Source of the DNA: Methylotenera sp.
GTDB taxonomy: Bacteria; Pseudomonadota; Gammaproteobacteria; Burkholderiales; Methylophilaceae
Reading direction: 5' to 3'
Length of the DNA: 64,000 nt
NCBI GenBank assembly: GCA_002928535.1
Contig: PERG01000001.1
Coordinates: 1-64,000 of the forward strand
Each line of letters begins with the position of its first letter. Positions within the stretch are counted from its first letter, which is position 1. This document shows, piece after piece, positions 4,373 through 40,845 of the stretch. The translations under genes and the position numbers were made by a program. The notes below the pieces were generated by a model. The model saw nothing but the letters and a program-made list of their open reading frames with translations, did not search any database and was not told where the DNA came from.

Positions 4373-6799
4373 ATGATCCGGACGATGCTTCAAAGAAGTA
4401 AACCAGCCGTTATGATTTGGTTAGTGATGATTATGATCAGCCTCGTCATCATTGCACGCAGCCATTTCACTGCTGATCTATCAGCTTTTTTACCCAGCAA
4501 ACCGACGGTAGAACAGCAGATGTTGATGGACCAGTTAAAAGACGGTCTGGCCTCACGCCTTATTCTGGTCGGTATTGAAGAAGCTGATCCGATTACGCGT
4601 GCCACCATCTCTAAAACGATTGCTCAAAAACTACGTAATCATCCGGCTTTCGTCACCGTTAACAACGGCGAAGATGTCACCACAGAACGTGACCAGCAAT
4701 ATCTTTTTAATCATCGTTATTTATTAAGCCCAGCAGTCACACCAGACCGTTTTAGTGTCGACGGTTTACGTGATGCTATCAGCGAGAGCATTGACCAAAT
4801 CGCTTCTCCAGCGGGGTTATTGCTTAAATCATTGTTGCCACACGACCCCACCGGGGAAATGCTGCAACTCCTTGACCAGATGAACACCGACAAGCGGCCT
4901 AGCCTTGTCGAAGGGGCATGGGCATCGCGCGATGGCAAGACGGCCTTATTGCTTTTACAAACGCGTGCCTTAGGCTCCGATACCGATGCCCAAAAAATCG
5001 CTATGCAATCTATTCAGCAGGCATTCGATGAGGCTCAGCGTGACCAGGTAAAATACGGTCAAGTACAACAAGCCAAACTGTTGATGACTGGGCCTGGGGT
5101 GTTCTCCGTGGTTTCACGCGATACAATCAAAACCCAAGTGCGTGTTATTTTTATCATTAGCAGTATATTGATTGGCATTTTATTGCTGGCGGTATATCGC
5201 TCAGTCACTGCATTATTGTTAGGTTTTCTGCCAGTGTTGACCGGTGTATTAGCAGGCATTGCATCCGTCAGCCTCGGTTTCGGGGTAGTACATGGCATTA
5301 CGCTCGGTTTCGGCACGGCCTTAATAGGCGAGGCCGTTGATTACTCAATTTACCTTTTCATGCTATCTGAGCGTGAAAATGCAAACAGTCAGAATTTAGA
5401 CCAAAATCAGCAGCGGCAACAGTGGGTTACCAAAGTCTGGCCTACAGTACGGTTGGGCGTACTCACCTCGGTATTCGGCTTTGCGGCATTATTAATGTCC
5501 GGGTTCCCGGGTCTGGCGCAACTCGGCCTTTATTCGGTCACTGGTTTGATTGCCGCCGCTGCCATGACGCGATTTGTATTGCCATATTTACTGCCAGCCA
5601 ATTTCAAAATAGCAGATGTGACACCAGCAGGCACTAAATTAGCGGCCGTTGCCCAGTTAGCTCCGCGTTTTCGCTGGTTGGCTATAGGTTTATTAGTCGC
5701 CTCGAGTGCAATTGTGTACCAGCATCATGACAGGCTATGGAATAACGAACTGGCAGCATTAAGCCCGGTTACCTTAGCTGACCAGCAGCTGGATACCAGG
5801 TTGCGTGCAGGGATGGGTGCGCCAGATGTGCGTTATGTCGTGGTCGTGTCAGGTAACAGCCAGGAAACAGTGCTACAAAATTCCGAGCAAGTGTCACGGG
5901 TTTTGGCAAGCTTAGTGGAAAATGGCACTTTGCAATCATTCGATACAGCCAGTCATTATTTACCTAGTAAGGCACAGCAAAAAGCGCGGTTAGCAGCTTT
6001 GCCTGACGCCGCAACATTAAAGCCTAGGCTTAACGAAGCATTACAGGGCTTACCAGTCAAAGCCAAAGTATTCCAGCCATTTTTAGTAGATGTAGAAGCC
6101 GCACGTCAATTACCGCTTTTAGAGCGTAAAGCCTTAGCAGGTACTTCCATGGCGATGGCGGTGGATGCGATGTTATTGCAGCAAGGCGACCGTTGGGCCG
6201 CACTCATGCCGCTCACAGCCGTGGAGGGCCAAAGTATCGATGCAGAAGTGGTCCGCCAGCATTTACGTAGCGTCCCCAATGCCTTATTCGTGGACATGAA
6301 AATGGAGTCGAATAAGCTATATGCGACTTATATGCATGAGGCCATTATGTTGTCTTTTGCCGGTGTTATCGCCATTATTGTGCTGCTCCTCGTAGTGCTG
6401 CGTTCCCCAGCGCGCGTGATTGCCATCGTGATTCCCCTGGCCGCTGCAGTGTTAACCGTGACCGCAGGCCTGGCACTGTTTGGTCAGCAACTCATCATTC
6501 TGCACCTGATCGGGATGTTATTGATTGTCGCCATCGGCTCCAACTATGCGCTGTTCTTTAATCCGCCTTCTGAACAAGCTGGCACGGCCATCTCTCCGCG
6601 TACCTATGCCTCATTATTGTTTGCCAATGTGGCAACGGTATTGGGGTTTGGCTTATTGGCTTTTTCTACTGTGCCGGTGTTGCAAGCTATGGGGCTGACA
6701 GTGGCCCCCGGGGTGATTTTGGCACTGATTTTTTCTGCAGTGTTTGCCAGTCAGAAACCTGCAAGTCAAAGTGCTAAAAATACTGGGCAAAAAAACTGA
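4373..6799 (+). CDS. MMPL/RND-superfamily exporter (ApeM-like)
   Basis: About 808 residues with the duplicated RND layout: one N-terminal membrane helix, a periplasmic domain, a block of five hydrophobic helices around residues 260-400, then the same pattern again ending in helices at about 650-790. GEAVDYSIYLFML in the first helix block is a typical MMPL sequence. It is expected to export the lipidated polyene from the inner membrane. I chose ATG at 4373 because GGAAAG lies at a suitable distance before it; a GTG at 4361 has no usable spacing. The stop codon overlaps the next start. Confidence 0.85.
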   Translation: MIRTMLQRSKPAVMIWLVMIMISLVIIARSHFTADLSAFLPSKPTVEQQMLMDQLKDGLASRLILVGIEEADPITRATISKTIAQKLRNHPAFVTVNNGEDVTTERDQQYLFNHRYLLSPAVTPDRFSVDGLRDAISESIDQIASPAGLLLKSLLPHDPTGEMLQLLDQMNTDKRPSLVEGAWASRDGKTALLLLQTRALGSDTDAQKIAMQSIQQAFDEAQRDQVKYGQVQQAKLLMTGPGVFSVVSRDTIKTQVRVIFIISSILIGILLLAVYRSVTALLLGFLPVLTGVLAGIASVSLGFGVVHGITLGFGTALIGEAVDYSIYLFMLSERENANSQNLDQNQQRQQWVTKVWPTVRLGVLTSVFGFAALLMSGFPGLAQLGLYSVTGLIAAAAMTRFVLPYLLPANFKIADVTPAGTKLAAVAQLAPRFRWLAIGLLVASSAIVYQHHDRLWNNELAALSPVTLADQQLDTRLRAGMGAPDVRYVVVVSGNSQETVLQNSEQVSRVLASLVENGTLQSFDTASHYLPSKAQQKARLAALPDAATLKPRLNEALQGLPVKAKVFQPFLVDVEAARQLPLLERKALAGTSMAMAVDAMLLQQGDRWAALMPLTAVEGQSIDAEVVRQHLRSVPNALFVDMKMESNKLYATYMHEAIMLSFAGVIAIIVLLLVVLRSPARVIAIVIPLAAAVLTVTAGLALFGQQLIILHLIGMLLIVAIGSNYALFFNPPSEQAGTAISPRTYASLLFANVATVLGFGLLAFSTVPVLQAMGLTVAPGVILALIFSAVFASQKPASQSAKNTGQKN

Positions 6800-33299: not shown

Positions 33300-33509
33300 A
33301 TGAAAGCCAGAAGCCTTGAATGCAGACAAGCAACGCCTATGAGCGATAAAGAACAAGAATCCATTGTGCATGAAAGGGCAGCCGAGCTATGGAACCTAAC
33401 TAAGCGCAAAGCACTGGTAGATATATTCGACATACGCGATAACGAGTTCAAACAGAAGGTTATCAGTTACGCAAACAACAAATATAGGAAAACAAATGGA
33501 AAAAACTAA
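33300..33509 (+). CDS. hypothetical phage protein
   Basis: 69 residues starting MKARSLECRQATPMSDKEQE, helical and basic at the C-terminus. It overlaps the next gene by 14 bases. No family recognised with confidence. Confidence 0.5.
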   Translation: MKARSLECRQATPMSDKEQESIVHERAAELWNLTKRKALVDIFDIRDNEFKQKVISYANNKYRKTNGKN

Positions 33510-33915
33510 TCAACACATCAAAGACTTTTGCGAAGTGGATATGACCAATTGGCTAGCATCTCGCAGACACTATCTGACAGGTAAGCAGATGAACATACTA
33601 GCGCAGTTCATGCCTAGCAAAGCATCGGTAGAGCGTGACTATCTGAATTGCCCATTATGTGCTGCATTCTATCTTGCGCTACTGTTAGAGATTGACCGAG
33701 ATATTGAGAAGGCCACTTGCTTTCTGTATGTGTATTTCCCTAAGTACAAACCACAGACATTGAAGGCTCATTTACACATTGATATGGAAGATAAGGTAAC
33801 TGTCCAGACCGCTATACGATGGGCACATGATACGGCAGAGCGCATCTATCATCTGGCACAAGTGAACGTGAGATTAACCGAGATGATGAAGTCTAAAGAC
33901 TTTGCATTCAATTAA
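33496..33915 (+). CDS. hypothetical protein at end of middle operon
   Basis: 139 residues starting MEKTNQHIKDFCEVDMTNWL. Predominantly helical, with CPLCAAFYLALLLEIDRDIE in the middle. It is the last gene before the terminator and the structured region, where lambdoid phages place the late antiterminator Q. I cannot show that it is Q. Confidence 0.5.
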   Translation: MEKTNQHIKDFCEVDMTNWLASRRHYLTGKQMNILAQFMPSKASVERDYLNCPLCAAFYLALLLEIDRDIEKATCFLYVYFPKYKPQTLKAHLHIDMEDKVTVQTAIRWAHDTAERIYHLAQVNVRLTEMMKSKDFAFN

Positions 33916-33944
33916 CATATTTGTGTTAACGAATAGATGTTAAC
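33912..33944. repeat. three regularly spaced TTAAC elements
   Basis: TTAAC (33912-33916), then two GTTAAC palindromes (33925-33930 and 33939-33944), about 14 bases apart. They overlap the end of the preceding gene and lie before the structured RNA region. They could be regulator-binding sites; no factor is known. Confidence 0.4.
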
Positions 33945-33991
33945 AAATTCAAATTTTAGGGTATCATTTTTCTATGCTCAAGCAGAGCGTT

Positions 33992-34015
33992 AGCCACCTT
34001 AGACGTGGCTTTTTC
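33992..34015 (+). terminator. terminator of the middle operon
   Basis: Hairpin AGCCAC-cttagac-GTGGCT followed by TTTTTC. It separates the replication/nin transcript from the structured RNA region. Confidence 0.85.
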
Positions 34016-34061
34016 TTTGCCCGTTATACTAGCAAACAGTAAGTCTTAGTATAGTTGCATT

Positions 34062-34201
34062 AAGAAGGATAAGCATAAGCAATCGTGTGTGAACGGTCTT
34101 TTGATGCCGTCTAGTCTAGGCTCCGAATGTAAGCGATTCGGCAGGGTGTATCAATCGTATACAGCTAGCACGTTAGAATCGTGTCTGTGTTTATCCTTCT
34201 T
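34062..34201 (+). ncRNA. candidate structured RNA, domain 1
   Basis: An 11-bp perfect closing stem, AAGAAGGATAA (34062-34072) with TTATCCTTCTT (34191-34201), encloses 118 bases. Inside are at least four hairpins: ACGG/CCGT (34093-34096, 34107-34110), CCGAAT/ATTCGG (34123-34141, 7-base loop), TGTAT/ATACA (34147-34163, 7-base loop) and CACG/CGTG (34169-34183, 7-base loop TTAGAAT). No ORF crosses it. A TATAGT at 34050-34055 would start a transcript near 34062, at the stem base. I recognise no known RNA family. Confidence 0.65.
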
Positions 34202-34297
34202 AGTGTCGCAATATGCCCAATACGGCTAGAGAGAAATCTACATATGTTCGCGCACACTAAGTTCATATAAGGGAAGTTGGCACCTTTTAAAAGCCAA
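34201..34297 (+). ncRNA. candidate structured RNA, domain 2
   Basis: TAGTGT-CGC pairs with GCG-c-ACACTA (34201-34209 with 34250-34259, one bulge), continued by ATATG/CATAT (34211-34215 with 34241-34245) and an apical TAGA/TCTA hairpin (34227-34240). A further TTGGC/GCCAA hairpin lies at 34277-34297, just before the ribosome binding site of the 47-residue ORF. It follows domain 1 with no gap and may be the same molecule or the leader of that ORF. Confidence 0.5.
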
Positions 34298-34318: not shown

Positions 34319-34462
34319 ATGGAAAAGTTAGATACAGCAATTGAAACAATATTATCTTTGATTACTAAAGATACAAAAGCGGACGAAGCGCTTAAATACA
34401 CGCAAGCCGCATTAAATTTATCGCATGTTAAAAACATTAATTTTGCGATTAACAAAGCATAA
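34319..34462 (+). CDS. 47-residue helical phage protein
   Basis: Starts MEKLDTAIETILSLITKDTK with TAGGAG ten bases upstream. Helical, slightly acidic front and basic end. It sits between two hairpin-rich noncoding stretches. No family recognised. Confidence 0.55.
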   Translation: MEKLDTAIETILSLITKDTKADEALKYTQAALNLSHVKNINFAINKA

Positions 34463-34600: not shown

Positions 34601-34807
34601 ATGTTTCAACTAGGTATTGCAAGTTTAATGTTTAATATCCAGAAGTCGATTCTTGATAATGATCGAGAGCAAAGATTGCAAGTGGCATTGTCTCCTGAAG
34701 AATTCGCAAAATGGAAAGCTGAACAAGCCGTAGAGCGTAGGCATCAAGAGATTGTATCTGCGATACGCTCTGTTAAAGTAGACTCTACATTTAACAATTA
34801 TTACTAA
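34601..34807 (+). CDS. small phage protein, unknown
   Basis: 68 residues starting MFQLGIASLMFNIQKSILDN, then a charged helix (EEFAKWKAEQAVERRHQEIV) and an Asn/Tyr end. ATG at 34601 has AAAGGTGG five bases upstream, preferred over the in-frame GTG at 34592. No family recognised. Confidence 0.55.
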   Translation: MFQLGIASLMFNIQKSILDNDREQRLQVALSPEEFAKWKAEQAVERRHQEIVSAIRSVKVDSTFNNYY

Positions 34808-34829: not shown

Positions 34830-34859
34830 AGCCTCATTGATTATCAGTGGGGCTTTTTT
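34830..34859 (+). terminator. Rho-independent terminator
   Basis: An 11-pair stem with several G-U pairs, from AGCCTCATTGA to TCAGTGGGGCT with a three-base loop, followed by TTTTTT and then ATTGGGC. Confidence 0.82.
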
Positions 34860-35622: not shown

Positions 35623-35907
35623 ATGGCTAAGTTTGAAGAAGGTAACCAAGCGGCCGCAAAAGGCCGCACCGTAGAGAAGTTATTAGAGCGTATTTTGTTA
35701 CAAGAAGATCATAAACGCTTGCGTAAAGGTTTAGAGGCTTTGATGGACAAAGTAGCAGATGGCGATCAACGCGCATTAGAGTTTGTGACCGATCGTTTAG
35801 ATGGTAAGGCACGCCAAGCTATTGACTTGGGCGGACAAGAAGATAACCCATTAGCATTTACTAGGATTGAGCGCGTAATTGTCAAGCCTACAGATAAAGA
35901 CTCCTGA
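35623..35907 (+). CDS. terminase small subunit-like protein
   Basis: 94 residues starting MAKFEEGNQAAAKGRTVEKL. The basic start, helical body (RLRKGLEALMDKVADGDQRA) and the DRLDGKARQ motif are typical of short phage small-terminase/DNA-packaging proteins. It overlaps the large terminase gene by 29 bases. Confidence 0.65.
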   Translation: MAKFEEGNQAAAKGRTVEKLLERILLQEDHKRLRKGLEALMDKVADGDQRALEFVTDRLDGKARQAIDLGGQEDNPLAFTRIERVIVKPTDKDS

Positions 35908-37120
35908 GGTCTTTCTCCCATTACTTGAGCCAGCACGTTACAAAGGCGCACATGGGGGGCGAGGATCAGGAAAGTCACATAACTTTGGTGACTTATGGCT
36001 AGAAGAGAACGTAACGGACAAGTATGACTTTGTATGTTTGCGTGAGACGCTTAAGTCATTAGAGTTTTCAGTAAAGAAGTTGCTAGAAGAGAAGATTGCC
36101 GCTTTTAACGCTGGCGCTTACTTTGATGTGCAGGATAGACGCATATTATCCAAGCATGGGGGGGTGACCATCTTTGAGGGTATGCAGAACCATACAGCCG
36201 ACTCCATTAAGTCTCTTGAGGGATTTGATAGAGCATGGTTCACAGAAGCACAAAGAGCCAGTGATAAGAGCCTAACGCTACTTAGGCCGACAATTCGCAA
36301 GGATGGTTCGCAGTTATGGTTTGACTGGAACCCTGAGAATGAGACAGACCCAATCGATCAGTTGCTAAGAGGTGAGAATCCACCTAAGGACGCAATTGTT
36401 GTTCAGGCTAACTATTTAGACAATCCTTTCCTCCCTGACGTATTGCGTGAGGAAATGGAGTTCGATAGAGCAAGAGACCCAGACAAATACGCATGGGTAT
36501 GGCTAGGCCAATATAAACAGAACAGTGAAGCGCGAGTATTCAAAAACTGGAAGGTTGAAGAGTTTGAAGTAGACCCTACAGCTCTTATTAGGCAAGGCGC
36601 TGATTGGGGCTTTGCAGTTGACCCGACAGTGTTGGTCCAGTGTTACATCGTAGGCCGCAAGCTATACGTGCCTTACGAGGCTTACCGTGTTGGATGTGAG
36701 ATTACAGATACACCAGCGTTGTTCATGACAGTGCCAGATAGCGAAAGCTGGCCTATTACTGCTGATAGTGCGAGACCTGAAACCATCAGCCACATGCAAA
36801 AGAATGGCTTCCCTAAGATCATGCCAGCAGTTAAAGGGCCGAAGTCATTAGAGGAAGGTGTCGAGTTCCTTAAGAGCTTTGACATCATTGTACACCCACG
36901 CTGCAAGCATACGATTGATGAACTCACGCTATACAGCTACAAGATTGACCCGCTTACTAACCTAATCATGCCAGTGCTGAATGACAAGGACAATCATGTG
37001 ATTGATGCCCTTAGATACGCATGCGAAGGCGCTAGACGAGCACAGAAGAAACCAAAGACCGACACAGTTGCAAGAACCCTTACTTATGACCTTAACAGCG
37101 GCAATAGCTGGATGGGGTAG
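35879..37120 (+). CDS. terminase large subunit
   Basis: 413 residues. The Walker A-type motif GGRGSGKSH lies near residue 27 and a Walker B-like region, FDRAWFTEAQRA, near 118 carries the ATPase acidic residues. The C-terminal nuclease domain includes QGADWGFAVDPTV near 240 and NDKDNHVIDALRYACEG near 375. It powers packaging of phage DNA. Starts with TTG inside the small terminase gene. Confidence 0.93.
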   Translation: MSSLQIKTPEVFLPLLEPARYKGAHGGRGSGKSHNFGDLWLEENVTDKYDFVCLRETLKSLEFSVKKLLEEKIAAFNAGAYFDVQDRRILSKHGGVTIFEGMQNHTADSIKSLEGFDRAWFTEAQRASDKSLTLLRPTIRKDGSQLWFDWNPENETDPIDQLLRGENPPKDAIVVQANYLDNPFLPDVLREEMEFDRARDPDKYAWVWLGQYKQNSEARVFKNWKVEEFEVDPTALIRQGADWGFAVDPTVLVQCYIVGRKLYVPYEAYRVGCEITDTPALFMTVPDSESWPITADSARPETISHMQKNGFPKIMPAVKGPKSLEEGVEFLKSFDIIVHPRCKHTIDELTLYSYKIDPLTNLIMPVLNDKDNHVIDALRYACEGARRAQKKPKTDTVARTLTYDLNSGNSWMG

Positions 37121-39339: not shown

Positions 39340-40215
39340 ATGAGTAAGTTATTACAAGCAATGCTATTTCCATTTATGCATACGTTTCATTTTGGGGATG
39401 GTGATGCACCCGCAGTAGAAGCTCCAGCTACAGAGCCAAGTGTAGCGCCTGAGTCCACAGATACGCCTACTGATGAACCAGCGAAAGAAGAGGCAGCAGC
39501 GCCCAAGACATTCACTGAGGAAGAAGTACAAGCCCAGATCAATGCCAAAGCCGCTGAGATTAGAAATCGCTATGAACGTAAGATCGAAAAGGCACGGATT
39601 GAAGCAGAAACCCGCGCCAAGGTAATGCAAGAAGTAGCAGCTAAACAAGAAGTACAGGATGCACCGCGAGAAGAGGATTTTGCTGATTACAGCGACTACC
39701 TGAAAGCCGTTGCCCGTTACGAAGTCAAGCAGGAATTGGCAGAAGAGCGTAAGCAACAACGTGAACAGGAAAATCAACGCACACAGCAAACAGAGCAAGC
39801 CCGTAAAGCCGAATTAGAAGAGGCTTTGATGGAAAAGGGAGTAAACAAATATCCAGATTTTGAGGAAGTCGCTGAAAGTACAGGCGAGCTACTCAGAACC
39901 AAAGGGTTGAAGTTTTCCCAAGCCATGTTAGGTGCTTTGCTTGAAGCCGACAACTCACAGGACATTGTGTATCACTTGGGCAAAACGCCAGAAGAAGCTG
40001 AACGGATTGCACGATTACCCGCTTACGCGCAAGCAAAAGAGATTGGCAAGCTTGAGGAGAAACTCAACGCACAGCCTAAAAAACAAATAAGCAAAGCCCC
40101 GGAGCCTATAACCCCTGTTTCGACAGGTAAGGCTAGCAATGACTCTGCAATTACCGATGATCTGCCCATTGAAGAATGGATGGCACGTCGTAATAAGCAA
40201 GCCAGGGGGCGTTAG
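39340..40215 (+). CDS. scaffolding protein
   Basis: 291 residues, acidic and Pro/Ala-rich at the N-terminus, then a long Glu/Arg/Gln-rich helix (about residues 65-165), ending in a basic tail (RRNKQARGR). Composition, size and position between portal and coat fit a P22-like scaffold that binds coat through a basic C-terminus. The stop codon directly touches that of the antisense HNH gene. Confidence 0.85.
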   Translation: MSKLLQAMLFPFMHTFHFGDGDAPAVEAPATEPSVAPESTDTPTDEPAKEEAAAPKTFTEEEVQAQINAKAAEIRNRYERKIEKARIEAETRAKVMQEVAAKQEVQDAPREEDFADYSDYLKAVARYEVKQELAEERKQQREQENQRTQQTEQARKAELEEALMEKGVNKYPDFEEVAESTGELLRTKGLKFSQAMLGALLEADNSQDIVYHLGKTPEEAERIARLPAYAQAKEIGKLEEKLNAQPKKQISKAPEPITPVSTGKASNDSAITDDLPIEEWMARRNKQARGR

Positions 40216-40845
40216 TTACGCCAGTATTTTGTAATCATTAAAGTTCTTAGATAGGCACCGTTTTCTTATGGTGTGAGGAAGAACGCCAGTTGCCCTAGAG
40301 GCTTCTGAGTACGAATTGTAAACGACCCCATCCACAGAGCATTTAGATGCATTTGGACTATTGAGCCGCATTTTGTCAATAGCATCCTCAGTGCATTTAG
40401 ATCCTTTAGCCCTGGGCGGTGGTTTTATACCTAAACGCAAGTTAGCTTCACGCTGCTTTTGTTTTGTCGCATCGGATAGTTTTATCCCAGTGCGAAATTC
40501 TCTCAATCTTTGTTTACCAGCATCGGACATTTTATGTCCTTTGCTAATGCCGTGATGACGGTCTGCAACGTGTTCCTTGGGTGATACCCACTCAAGATTA
40601 ATAGCGCGATTGTCGGCTTTGTTATGGTTGATATGGTGAACCAAAGTGGCGTTGTCAGGTTTGTTGAGCCATACGCTAGCCACAACCCTGTGGGCAAGTA
40701 ATTGCCTGCCTACCGTTGCATAGCCATCTTTTCTGATGGTGGGTGCAAGAGGTATCAATTTCCTAAGAAACTTTCCACAAGAGGACGCGGCAAGTAAGTG
40801 ATTGTAGAAGCGGTATTCAATACCGTCATGCATAACTGAAAGCAT
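40216..40845 (-). CDS. HNH homing endonuclease, antisense between scaffold and coat genes
   Basis: 209 residues. The HNH core is AHRVVASVW, then TLVHHINHNKADNRAINLEW (residues ~50-86). NUMOD3-like repeats (GHKMSDAGKQ, GIKLSDATKQ) follow, and a NUMOD1-like helix-turn-helix at the C-terminus (YSEASRATGVLPHTIRKRC) binds DNA. It is a freestanding selfish nuclease. It is oriented against the virion genes, so it needs its own promoter, which I could not identify. Confidence 0.88.
   Translation of the reverse strand: MLSVMHDGIEYRFYNHLLAASSCGKFLRKLIPLAPTIRKDGYATVGRQLLAHRVVASVWLNKPDNATLVHHINHNKADNRAINLEWVSPKEHVADRHHGISKGHKMSDAGKQRLREFRTGIKLSDATKQKQREANLRLGIKPPPRAKGSKCTEDAIDKMRLNSPNASKCSVDGVVYNSYSEASRATGVLPHTIRKRCLSKNFNDYKILA

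What the first reader, a model, noticed from the sequence alone, without database searches (positions are those of the whole stretch)
34062..34201. Compact multi-hairpin RNA candidate in the prophage late-control region
Seen directly: an 11-bp perfect closing stem (34062-34072 with 34191-34201) enclosing four hairpins, three with 7-base loops, in a stretch with no ORF. A terminator lies upstream (33992-34015) and a -10-like TATAGT would start transcription at the stem base. It lies between the nin-like region and the terminase. One loop (TTAGAAT) resembles a tRNA T-loop, yet the whole does not fold as a tRNA. It may be an undescribed phage RNA class or packaging RNA.
Basis: partly seen in the sequence, partly recalled or inferred. 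Interest (0 to 1): 0.75.

Follow-up and report, generated by a model that had tools for sequence, protein, structure and literature searches.

The report
Stem-closed RNA in phage late leader
A prophage carries, just after the switch that turns on its late genes, a stretch whose two ends pair into an unusually long RNA stem; it is probably a structured piece of the late-gene message that the cell cuts out, but no relative was found, so its inner shape and job stay unproven.

Summary
It is rare, not unique: 3 of 600 simulated 64-kb sequences and 1 of 86 sister loci, 731 kb, reach it. The + strand folds far better than the - strand, which favours RNA. The interior (34078-34185) folds no better than its shuffles, so the four hairpins are not established; the proposed -10 has no -35.

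The context is clearer. A Q-type antiterminator gene (33496-33915; pairwise E 2e-09 to the annotated Q of phage PBR31), a promoter-like site (33940-33967) and a terminator (33992-34010) look like a lambda-type late switch; the element lies in the leader behind it. In 4 of 4 records with this Q the slot is empty; some phages with related terminases hold a tRNA there (5 of 86 loci) or a covarying 45-nt hairpin.

No homologue was found, so covariation is untestable. Best reading: a leader RNA domain closed by an RNase III-type helix. A packaging RNA or new RNA class is unsupported.

The parts
33496..33915 (+). 139-aa Q-type antiterminator gene (candidate)
   Evidence: 29% identity over 96 aa, pairwise E 2e-09 (38.9 bits), to the protein annotated antiterminator Q in Xanthomonas phage PBR31; 29-35% identity to four relatives in an alignment. 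The E-value is for one comparison; the database search with the window protein did not list PBR31 at E 0.01. No Pfam, NCBIfam or PHROG match below E 0.03, nor any at E 1 in Pfam or PHROGs for the PBR31 protein, so the name rests on the depositor's annotation and on position.
33912..33944 (.). candidate Q-binding half-sites: TTAACA / TGTTAAC inverted, then TGTTAAC repeated 14 bp on
   Evidence: read; same layout with another sequence upstream of the late promoter in L173, L176, L177, L178 (read by eye). Inference.
33940..33967 (+). late promoter candidate, TTAACA-16-TATCAT (10 of 12)
   Evidence: best of 7 promoter-like sites in 3 kb, where shuffles give 8.0 on average, so the case rests on its score and place
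33992..34015 (+). terminator (tR'-like), about 20-40 nt into the inferred transcript
   Evidence: stem 33992-34010 plus T tail; 5 terminator-like sites in 3 kb against 1.9 in shuffles
34057..34077 (+). 5' arm of the 21-bp closing stem
   Evidence: mean pair probability 0.985
34078..34185 (+). enclosed 108 nt; possible hairpins 34123-34141, 34147-34163, 34168-34184 (7-nt loops)
   Evidence: pair probabilities 0.68-0.72, but stability within that of shuffles
34186..34206 (+). 3' arm of the closing stem
34319..34462 (+). 47-aa ORF, first gene-like ORF behind the element
   Evidence: no PHROG match at 0.001 and no Pfam match at 0.1; in 187 family genomes only two weak matches inside longer frames
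34604..34807 (+). 67-aa ORF with a short local match to L103 3054-3302
   Evidence: 11 aa, pairwise E 0.001
34830..34858 (+). second terminator before the terminase genes
   Evidence: stem 34830-34854 plus T tail
35879..37120 (+). terminase large subunit
   Evidence: phrog_3717 E 8.6e-53

Best explanation
It is a structured domain of the 5' leader of the phage's late transcript. Transcription starts at the promoter 33940-33967 and stops at the terminator 33992-34010 unless the Q-type protein made from the gene just upstream loads onto the polymerase; with Q, the polymerase reads on through the element and into the terminase and capsid genes. Once transcribed, the two arms pair into a 21-bp helix. 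The likeliest consequence is cleavage of that helix by a double-strand RNase (RNase III), which frees the enclosed ~110-150 nt as a small RNA and gives the late mRNA a new 5' end, in the way that RNase III releases pre-rRNAs from leader-trailer helices. Shown here: the layout, a rare helix, the strand preference, and that some other phages keep tRNAs or a covarying hairpin in the same slot. Inferred: transcription, Q control, cleavage, and any function of the freed RNA.
For: Helix length against null. Stability z -4.4 to -5.2 on the + strand against z -2.1 on the - strand; the ten pairs outside the perfect 11-bp core include four G-U pairs, so the helix is long only as + strand RNA. Promoter-like site and terminator in the order of a Q-dependent late switch, Q-type gene by pairwise homology; known Q mechanism from passages of PMC6606751. 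The slot holds tRNA genes, which are themselves excised RNAs, in 5 of 86 terminase loci (4 of the 54 clusters with at least 1500 nt upstream), among them the closest terminase relative L031 (86%). Precedent for RNase III cutting helices that close a structured RNA: passages of PMC10250234.
Against: No homologue, hence no covariation test. The interior looks like shuffled sequence. In real sister sequence a 21-bp stem also occurs within ORFs (L090). The 4 records with the most similar Q (two pairs of close relatives) have no room for such an element, so it is not part of the switch itself. Promoter-like sites are no more frequent than in shuffles. No transcript data.
Confidence: 0.43

Rival explanations
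1. A structured leader segment that acts in place (mRNA stability, pausing, shielding of the first ribosome binding site) and is not excised.
For: Same layout and helix evidence. Covarying 45-nt hairpins in the same slot of sister phages have no obvious processing helix.
Against: A 21-bp closed helix is about the size that RNase III cuts (recalled), so survival uncut would need explaining.
Confidence: 0.19
2. A decayed or rebuilt tRNA gene: arms in the order D, anticodon, variable, T, kept in the slot where some sister phages have tRNAs.
For: tRNAs in the slot; 7-nt loops, one T-loop-like.
Against: ARAGORN none; no Rfam match at E up to 10 even on the 150 nt alone, while two slot tRNAs score 51-53 bits (a third, in L113, stays below the Rfam gathering score); no CCA end, stem of 21 instead of 7 bp.
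Confidence: 0.07
3. A mobile-element remnant (MITE-like) with terminal inverted repeats next to TA.
For: 11-bp perfect inverted repeat, TA on both outer sides if the repeat is read as AGAAGGATAA; slot empty in Q relatives.
Against: Single copy in its genome; only short matches (16-37 nt) in the other 149 genomes searched; none in plasmids; in phages one 27-nt match outside the element at E 0.4; the one exact-arm pattern hit in viral contigs is unrelated; pairing continues by G-U on both sides, which a DNA repeat does not explain.
Confidence: 0.12
4. An independent small RNA started by its own promoter at the stem base.
For: TATAGT at 34050-34055.
Against: No -35 and no scan hit; the one site of the region scoring 10 of 12 lies upstream.
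Confidence: 0.06
5. Chance inverted repeat in non-coding DNA.
For: Raised from 0.10 to 0.13 on re-check because.
Against: Falls in the 300-nt leader rather than anywhere in 64 kb; 0 of 4000 random 403-nt sequences exceed 17 bp.
Confidence: 0.13

Closest known systems
Q-dependent late switch of lambdoid phages (pR'-tR'; lambda, 21)
   Same: Q-type gene, promoter-like site, terminator within about 40 nt of the inferred start, late genes beyond
   Different: Those leaders need no structured RNA behind the terminator (recalled); here a 150-nt element follows it
Leader-trailer helices of pre-rRNA cut by RNase III (PMC10250234, passages)
   Same: Long helix closing a segment inside a longer transcript
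   Different: 21 bp here against 25-40 bp for pre-16S; interior shows no detectable fold; cleavage untested
tRNA genes in the late leader of phages with related terminases (L031, L039/L040, L096, L113)
   Same: Same slot between late promoter-terminator and terminase genes
   Different: The window element is no tRNA by ARAGORN or Rfam
45-nt covarying hairpin in late leaders (L057-L062, L069, L076, L080 and others; this work)
   Same: Same slot, stem-closed
   Different: Different size and sequence; model R2 does not match the window at E up to 0.5
GOLLD and ROOL RNAs (PMC12286853, passages)
   Same: Phage RNAs of unknown function, often near tRNAs
   Different: Far larger (GOLLD often over 800 nt) with conserved folds, profiles of which are in Rfam; no match here

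Membership tests
tRNA (RF00005) | covariance-model score / ARAGORN call | tested here: not met
tRNA (RF00005) | 7-bp acceptor with CCA end | tested here: not met
   21-bp stem, no CCA; CCA need not be encoded in all tRNA genes (recalled)
Any Rfam 15 family | match at gathering score or E up to 10 | tested here: not met
   the one E 4.8 hit lies outside the element
Q-dependent late leader | Q-type protein gene next to the late promoter | tested here: met
   pairwise homology to annotated Q of PBR31; the annotation itself has no profile support
Q-dependent late leader | promoter followed closely by a terminator | tested here: met
   consensus matches only
Q-dependent late leader | readthrough only with Q | not testable with these tools
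   needs transcription assay
RNase III-processed closing helix | long uninterrupted RNA helix closing a loop | tested here: met
   21 bp; control
RNase III-processed closing helix | cleavage by RNase III | not testable with these tools
   needs RNA ends in wild type and mutant
Conserved structured RNA | compensatory base changes among homologues | tested here: inconclusive
   no homologue found to count on
Conserved structured RNA | enclosed fold more stable than shuffles | tested here: not met
   z +0.53, 281 of 400
MITE | multiple copies in genome or relatives | tested here: not met
Packaging RNA (phi29 pRNA kind) | phi29-type packaging motor and genome-end position | tested here: not met
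   terminase large subunit, portal and head genes instead; what defines pRNA is recalled

The most novel reading that the evidence does not exclude
The late leader of this broad phage group is a reserved slot for excised, non-coding RNAs (tRNAs, a covarying 45-nt hairpin, and here a stem-closed 150-nt RNA), made only after Q acts; the window RNA is the first seen member of an undescribed small-RNA class that acts late in infection.
Probability: 0.12. Interest if true: 0.6.

Novelty: new member of a known kind. Interest (0 to 1): 0.32.

Why it matters
If the element is excised, it would show that phages put diverse processed RNAs into the one leader that their antiterminator opens, a simple way to time an RNA to the late phase. 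The covarying 45-nt hairpin found in sister phages makes that idea testable even though the window element itself is an orphan. If not, the case is a caution: a striking closing stem can make a random interior look like an ornate RNA.

Tried and rejected
Homology of the element: blastn in phages (one 27-nt match at E 0.4 outside the element), plasmids (66: none), own genome (8: itself only), 150 genomes including its own (7: 71 with a match at E up to 1; apart from itself only stretches of 16-37 nt, E 0.02 and above); single-sequence model R1 on 87 sources, the window among them (22: itself and one hit at E 9.3), 187 family genomes (23: itself only), 340 order genomes (68: itself and two weak hits, one a bare hairpin, one antisense to a coding gene), 17 loci found by two loop patterns (36, 37; no R1 match, 39; folds unlike, 40), L172 (81; unrelated, 83-85) and 16 further loci (123: one hit at E 2). 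Viral contigs were searched for the element only by three exact patterns and by R1 on fetched loci, not by similarity. The genome sets overlap, are sampled, hold one genome per species, and sets over 40 genomes use stricter filters. R1 comes from one sequence, so distant relatives can be missed. The terminase loci are the best 80 of 342 viral-contig matches plus 6 of genome contigs.

Long stems in sister loci (best 60 of 91 printed): L061 1797-1905 closes a non-coding segment in the slot; its flanks abut or nearly abut in L062, L066, L069 and L080, and it resembles the window element only in plan. L039/L040 have 15-bp stems with 4-5 G-U pairs at 4799-5096 and L036 a 14-bp one at 4618-4815 near the slot; not followed up. 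Known ribozymes: no Rfam hit. Prophage genes NinG and TerL are not shared by close relatives: 0 and 1 of the other 186 family genomes. Q assignment of the slot-neighbour ORFs of L031, L061 and L077 by profile failed (L031 has E 0.24 to a Q-like PHROG); those of L031 and L061 do not align with the PBR31 Q nor with the window protein.

Literature: searches gave no description of this element or slot in their listings; only passages were read of PMC7946995, PMC6606751, PMC12286853, PMC10250234 and PMC6266700. tRNA genes in late leaders of other lambdoid phages are recalled; one search found no mention of tRNA in PMC6266700.

Full report
What is in the sequence. It is the longest stem of 90-230 nt span with at most four G-U pairs in the window (next 15 bp). 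3 of 600 Markov sequences of 64 kb reach 21 bp, and none of 4000 of 403 nt, the length of the local non-coding stretch. Real sequence is a harder control: 1 of 86 sister loci (730,821 bases) has such a stem, in L090 within ORFs. The whole element folds at -52.8 kcal/mol, z -5.15, 0 of 400 shuffles as stable; with flanks -55.4, z -4.37. The opposite strand gives -34.6, z -2.08. The reason is that four of the ten pairs outside the perfect core are G-U, which only the + strand RNA can form. That is the best single argument for an RNA-level element.

What is not established. So the 'compact multi-hairpin RNA' rests on the closing stem alone. ARAGORN finds no tRNA there, Rfam nothing on the element, at gathering score or at E up to 10. 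The suggested -10 has no -35.

Surroundings. Upstream lies a 139-aa gene. It has no family match, and searches with it in viral contigs, phages, plasmids and 52 genomes of the genus gave no relative. A direct comparison with the gene annotated 'antiterminator Q' in Xanthomonas phage PBR31, whose terminase is 68.5% identical to the window's, gives E 2e-09; this E is for one pair, and the database search had not listed PBR31 at E 0.01. Three viral contigs carry further relatives of the PBR31 protein, and all five align. In PBR31 and in those contigs the Q gene is followed by an arrangement read by eye: an inverted half-site pair plus a third copy, a -10, and a terminator. In the window the half-sites are TTAACA/TGTTAAC/TGTTAAC at 33912-33944, the promoter candidate is TTAACA-16-TATCAT (33940-33967) and the terminator 33992-34010 (promoter-like sites as such are no more frequent than in shuffles, terminators are, 5 against 1.9). 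This is the layout of a lambda-like late switch; in the known case Q loads at the late promoter and makes RNA polymerase resist terminators (PMC6606751, passages). A second terminator stands at 34830-34854, before the terminase, portal and major head genes; portals beside related terminases in two GenBank records are annotated P22-like. Transcription and Q control are inferred here.

The slot in other phages. In 4 of 4 records with the window-type Q (two pairs of close relatives) the next gene starts right behind the terminator, so the element is an addition in the window phage (ORFs 127-129). Among 86 loci with related terminases (66 with at least 1500 nt upstream, 54 clusters), 5 (4 clusters) carry a tRNA gene 417-1209 nt upstream of the terminase on the same strand, behind a promoter-like site and a terminator-like hairpin (L096 by script; L031, L039/L040 and L113 read by eye); one is the closest terminase relative, L031. 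Nine of 87 sources carry a 45-nt stem-closed hairpin at E below 1e-15, four more have weak matches at E 0.015-0.41. In six distinct copies all 78 pair cells are standard and four pairs, all of the inner stem, change on both sides; six of the seven closing pairs never vary; slid controls pair at most 47%; 0 or 1 of 500 shuffles reach four of the five measures, 64 of 500 the fifth. A pattern scan of viral contigs finds 19 records with 11 distinct copies, about half of them contigs already in hand, 14 with the terminase 751-1176 nt downstream. It has no Rfam match in the loci scanned and does not match the window.

Homologues of the element itself. None found: see Tried and rejected for the calls and their limits.

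Most likely working. The helix is transcribed only when Q lets polymerase pass the first terminator. A helix of this kind that closes a segment of a longer transcript is what RNase III cuts in pre-rRNA (PMC10250234, passages). The slot's use for tRNAs, which are excised too, fits. I favour an excised late-leader RNA at 0.43, an uncut leader structure at 0.19, chance at 0.13 and a mobile-element remnant at 0.12; on re-check chance rose from 0.10, the first two fell from 0.45 and 0.20, because. Nothing found supports a packaging RNA.

Verdict. A real, probably RNA-level closing helix in a well-defined place; an orphan with an unproven interior. Interest is moderate to low; the slot as such, with a covarying hairpin in sister phages, is the more promising lead.

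Noticed in passing
L057:2082-2126, L061:1752-1796, L062:2855-2899, L069:2633-2677, L076:5206-5250, L080:919-963: A 45-nt hairpin RNA with a 7-bp closing stem and a covarying 6-bp inner stem, behind the late terminator of phages with related terminases; 19 viral-contig records, 11 distinct copies, no Rfam match in the loci scanned.
   Followed up: partly
L053:2395-2515 and L077:4816-4936: Two loci share another two-hairpin element behind the late terminator, with hairpins that differ in sequence but seem to keep pairing (by eye); two sequences only.
   Followed up: no
L031:1953-2026; L039:4965-5039; L096:5474-5549; L113:4721-4792: tRNA genes (Gly, Met, Trp, Trp) placed between the late promoter-terminator and the terminase genes.
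   Followed up: partly
L061:1797-1905: A 109-nt segment closed by a perfect 16-bp stem in the same slot, missing from otherwise similar loci.
   Followed up: partly
window 33912-33944; L173, L176, L177, L178 upstream of the late promoter: Three half-sites (inverted pair plus direct copy) with different sequences but the same layout: candidate binding sites of this Q family.
   Followed up: partly
window 40216-40845 (-): HNH homing-type endonuclease gene lying head-on between the gene at 39340-40215 and the major head gene.
   Followed up: no
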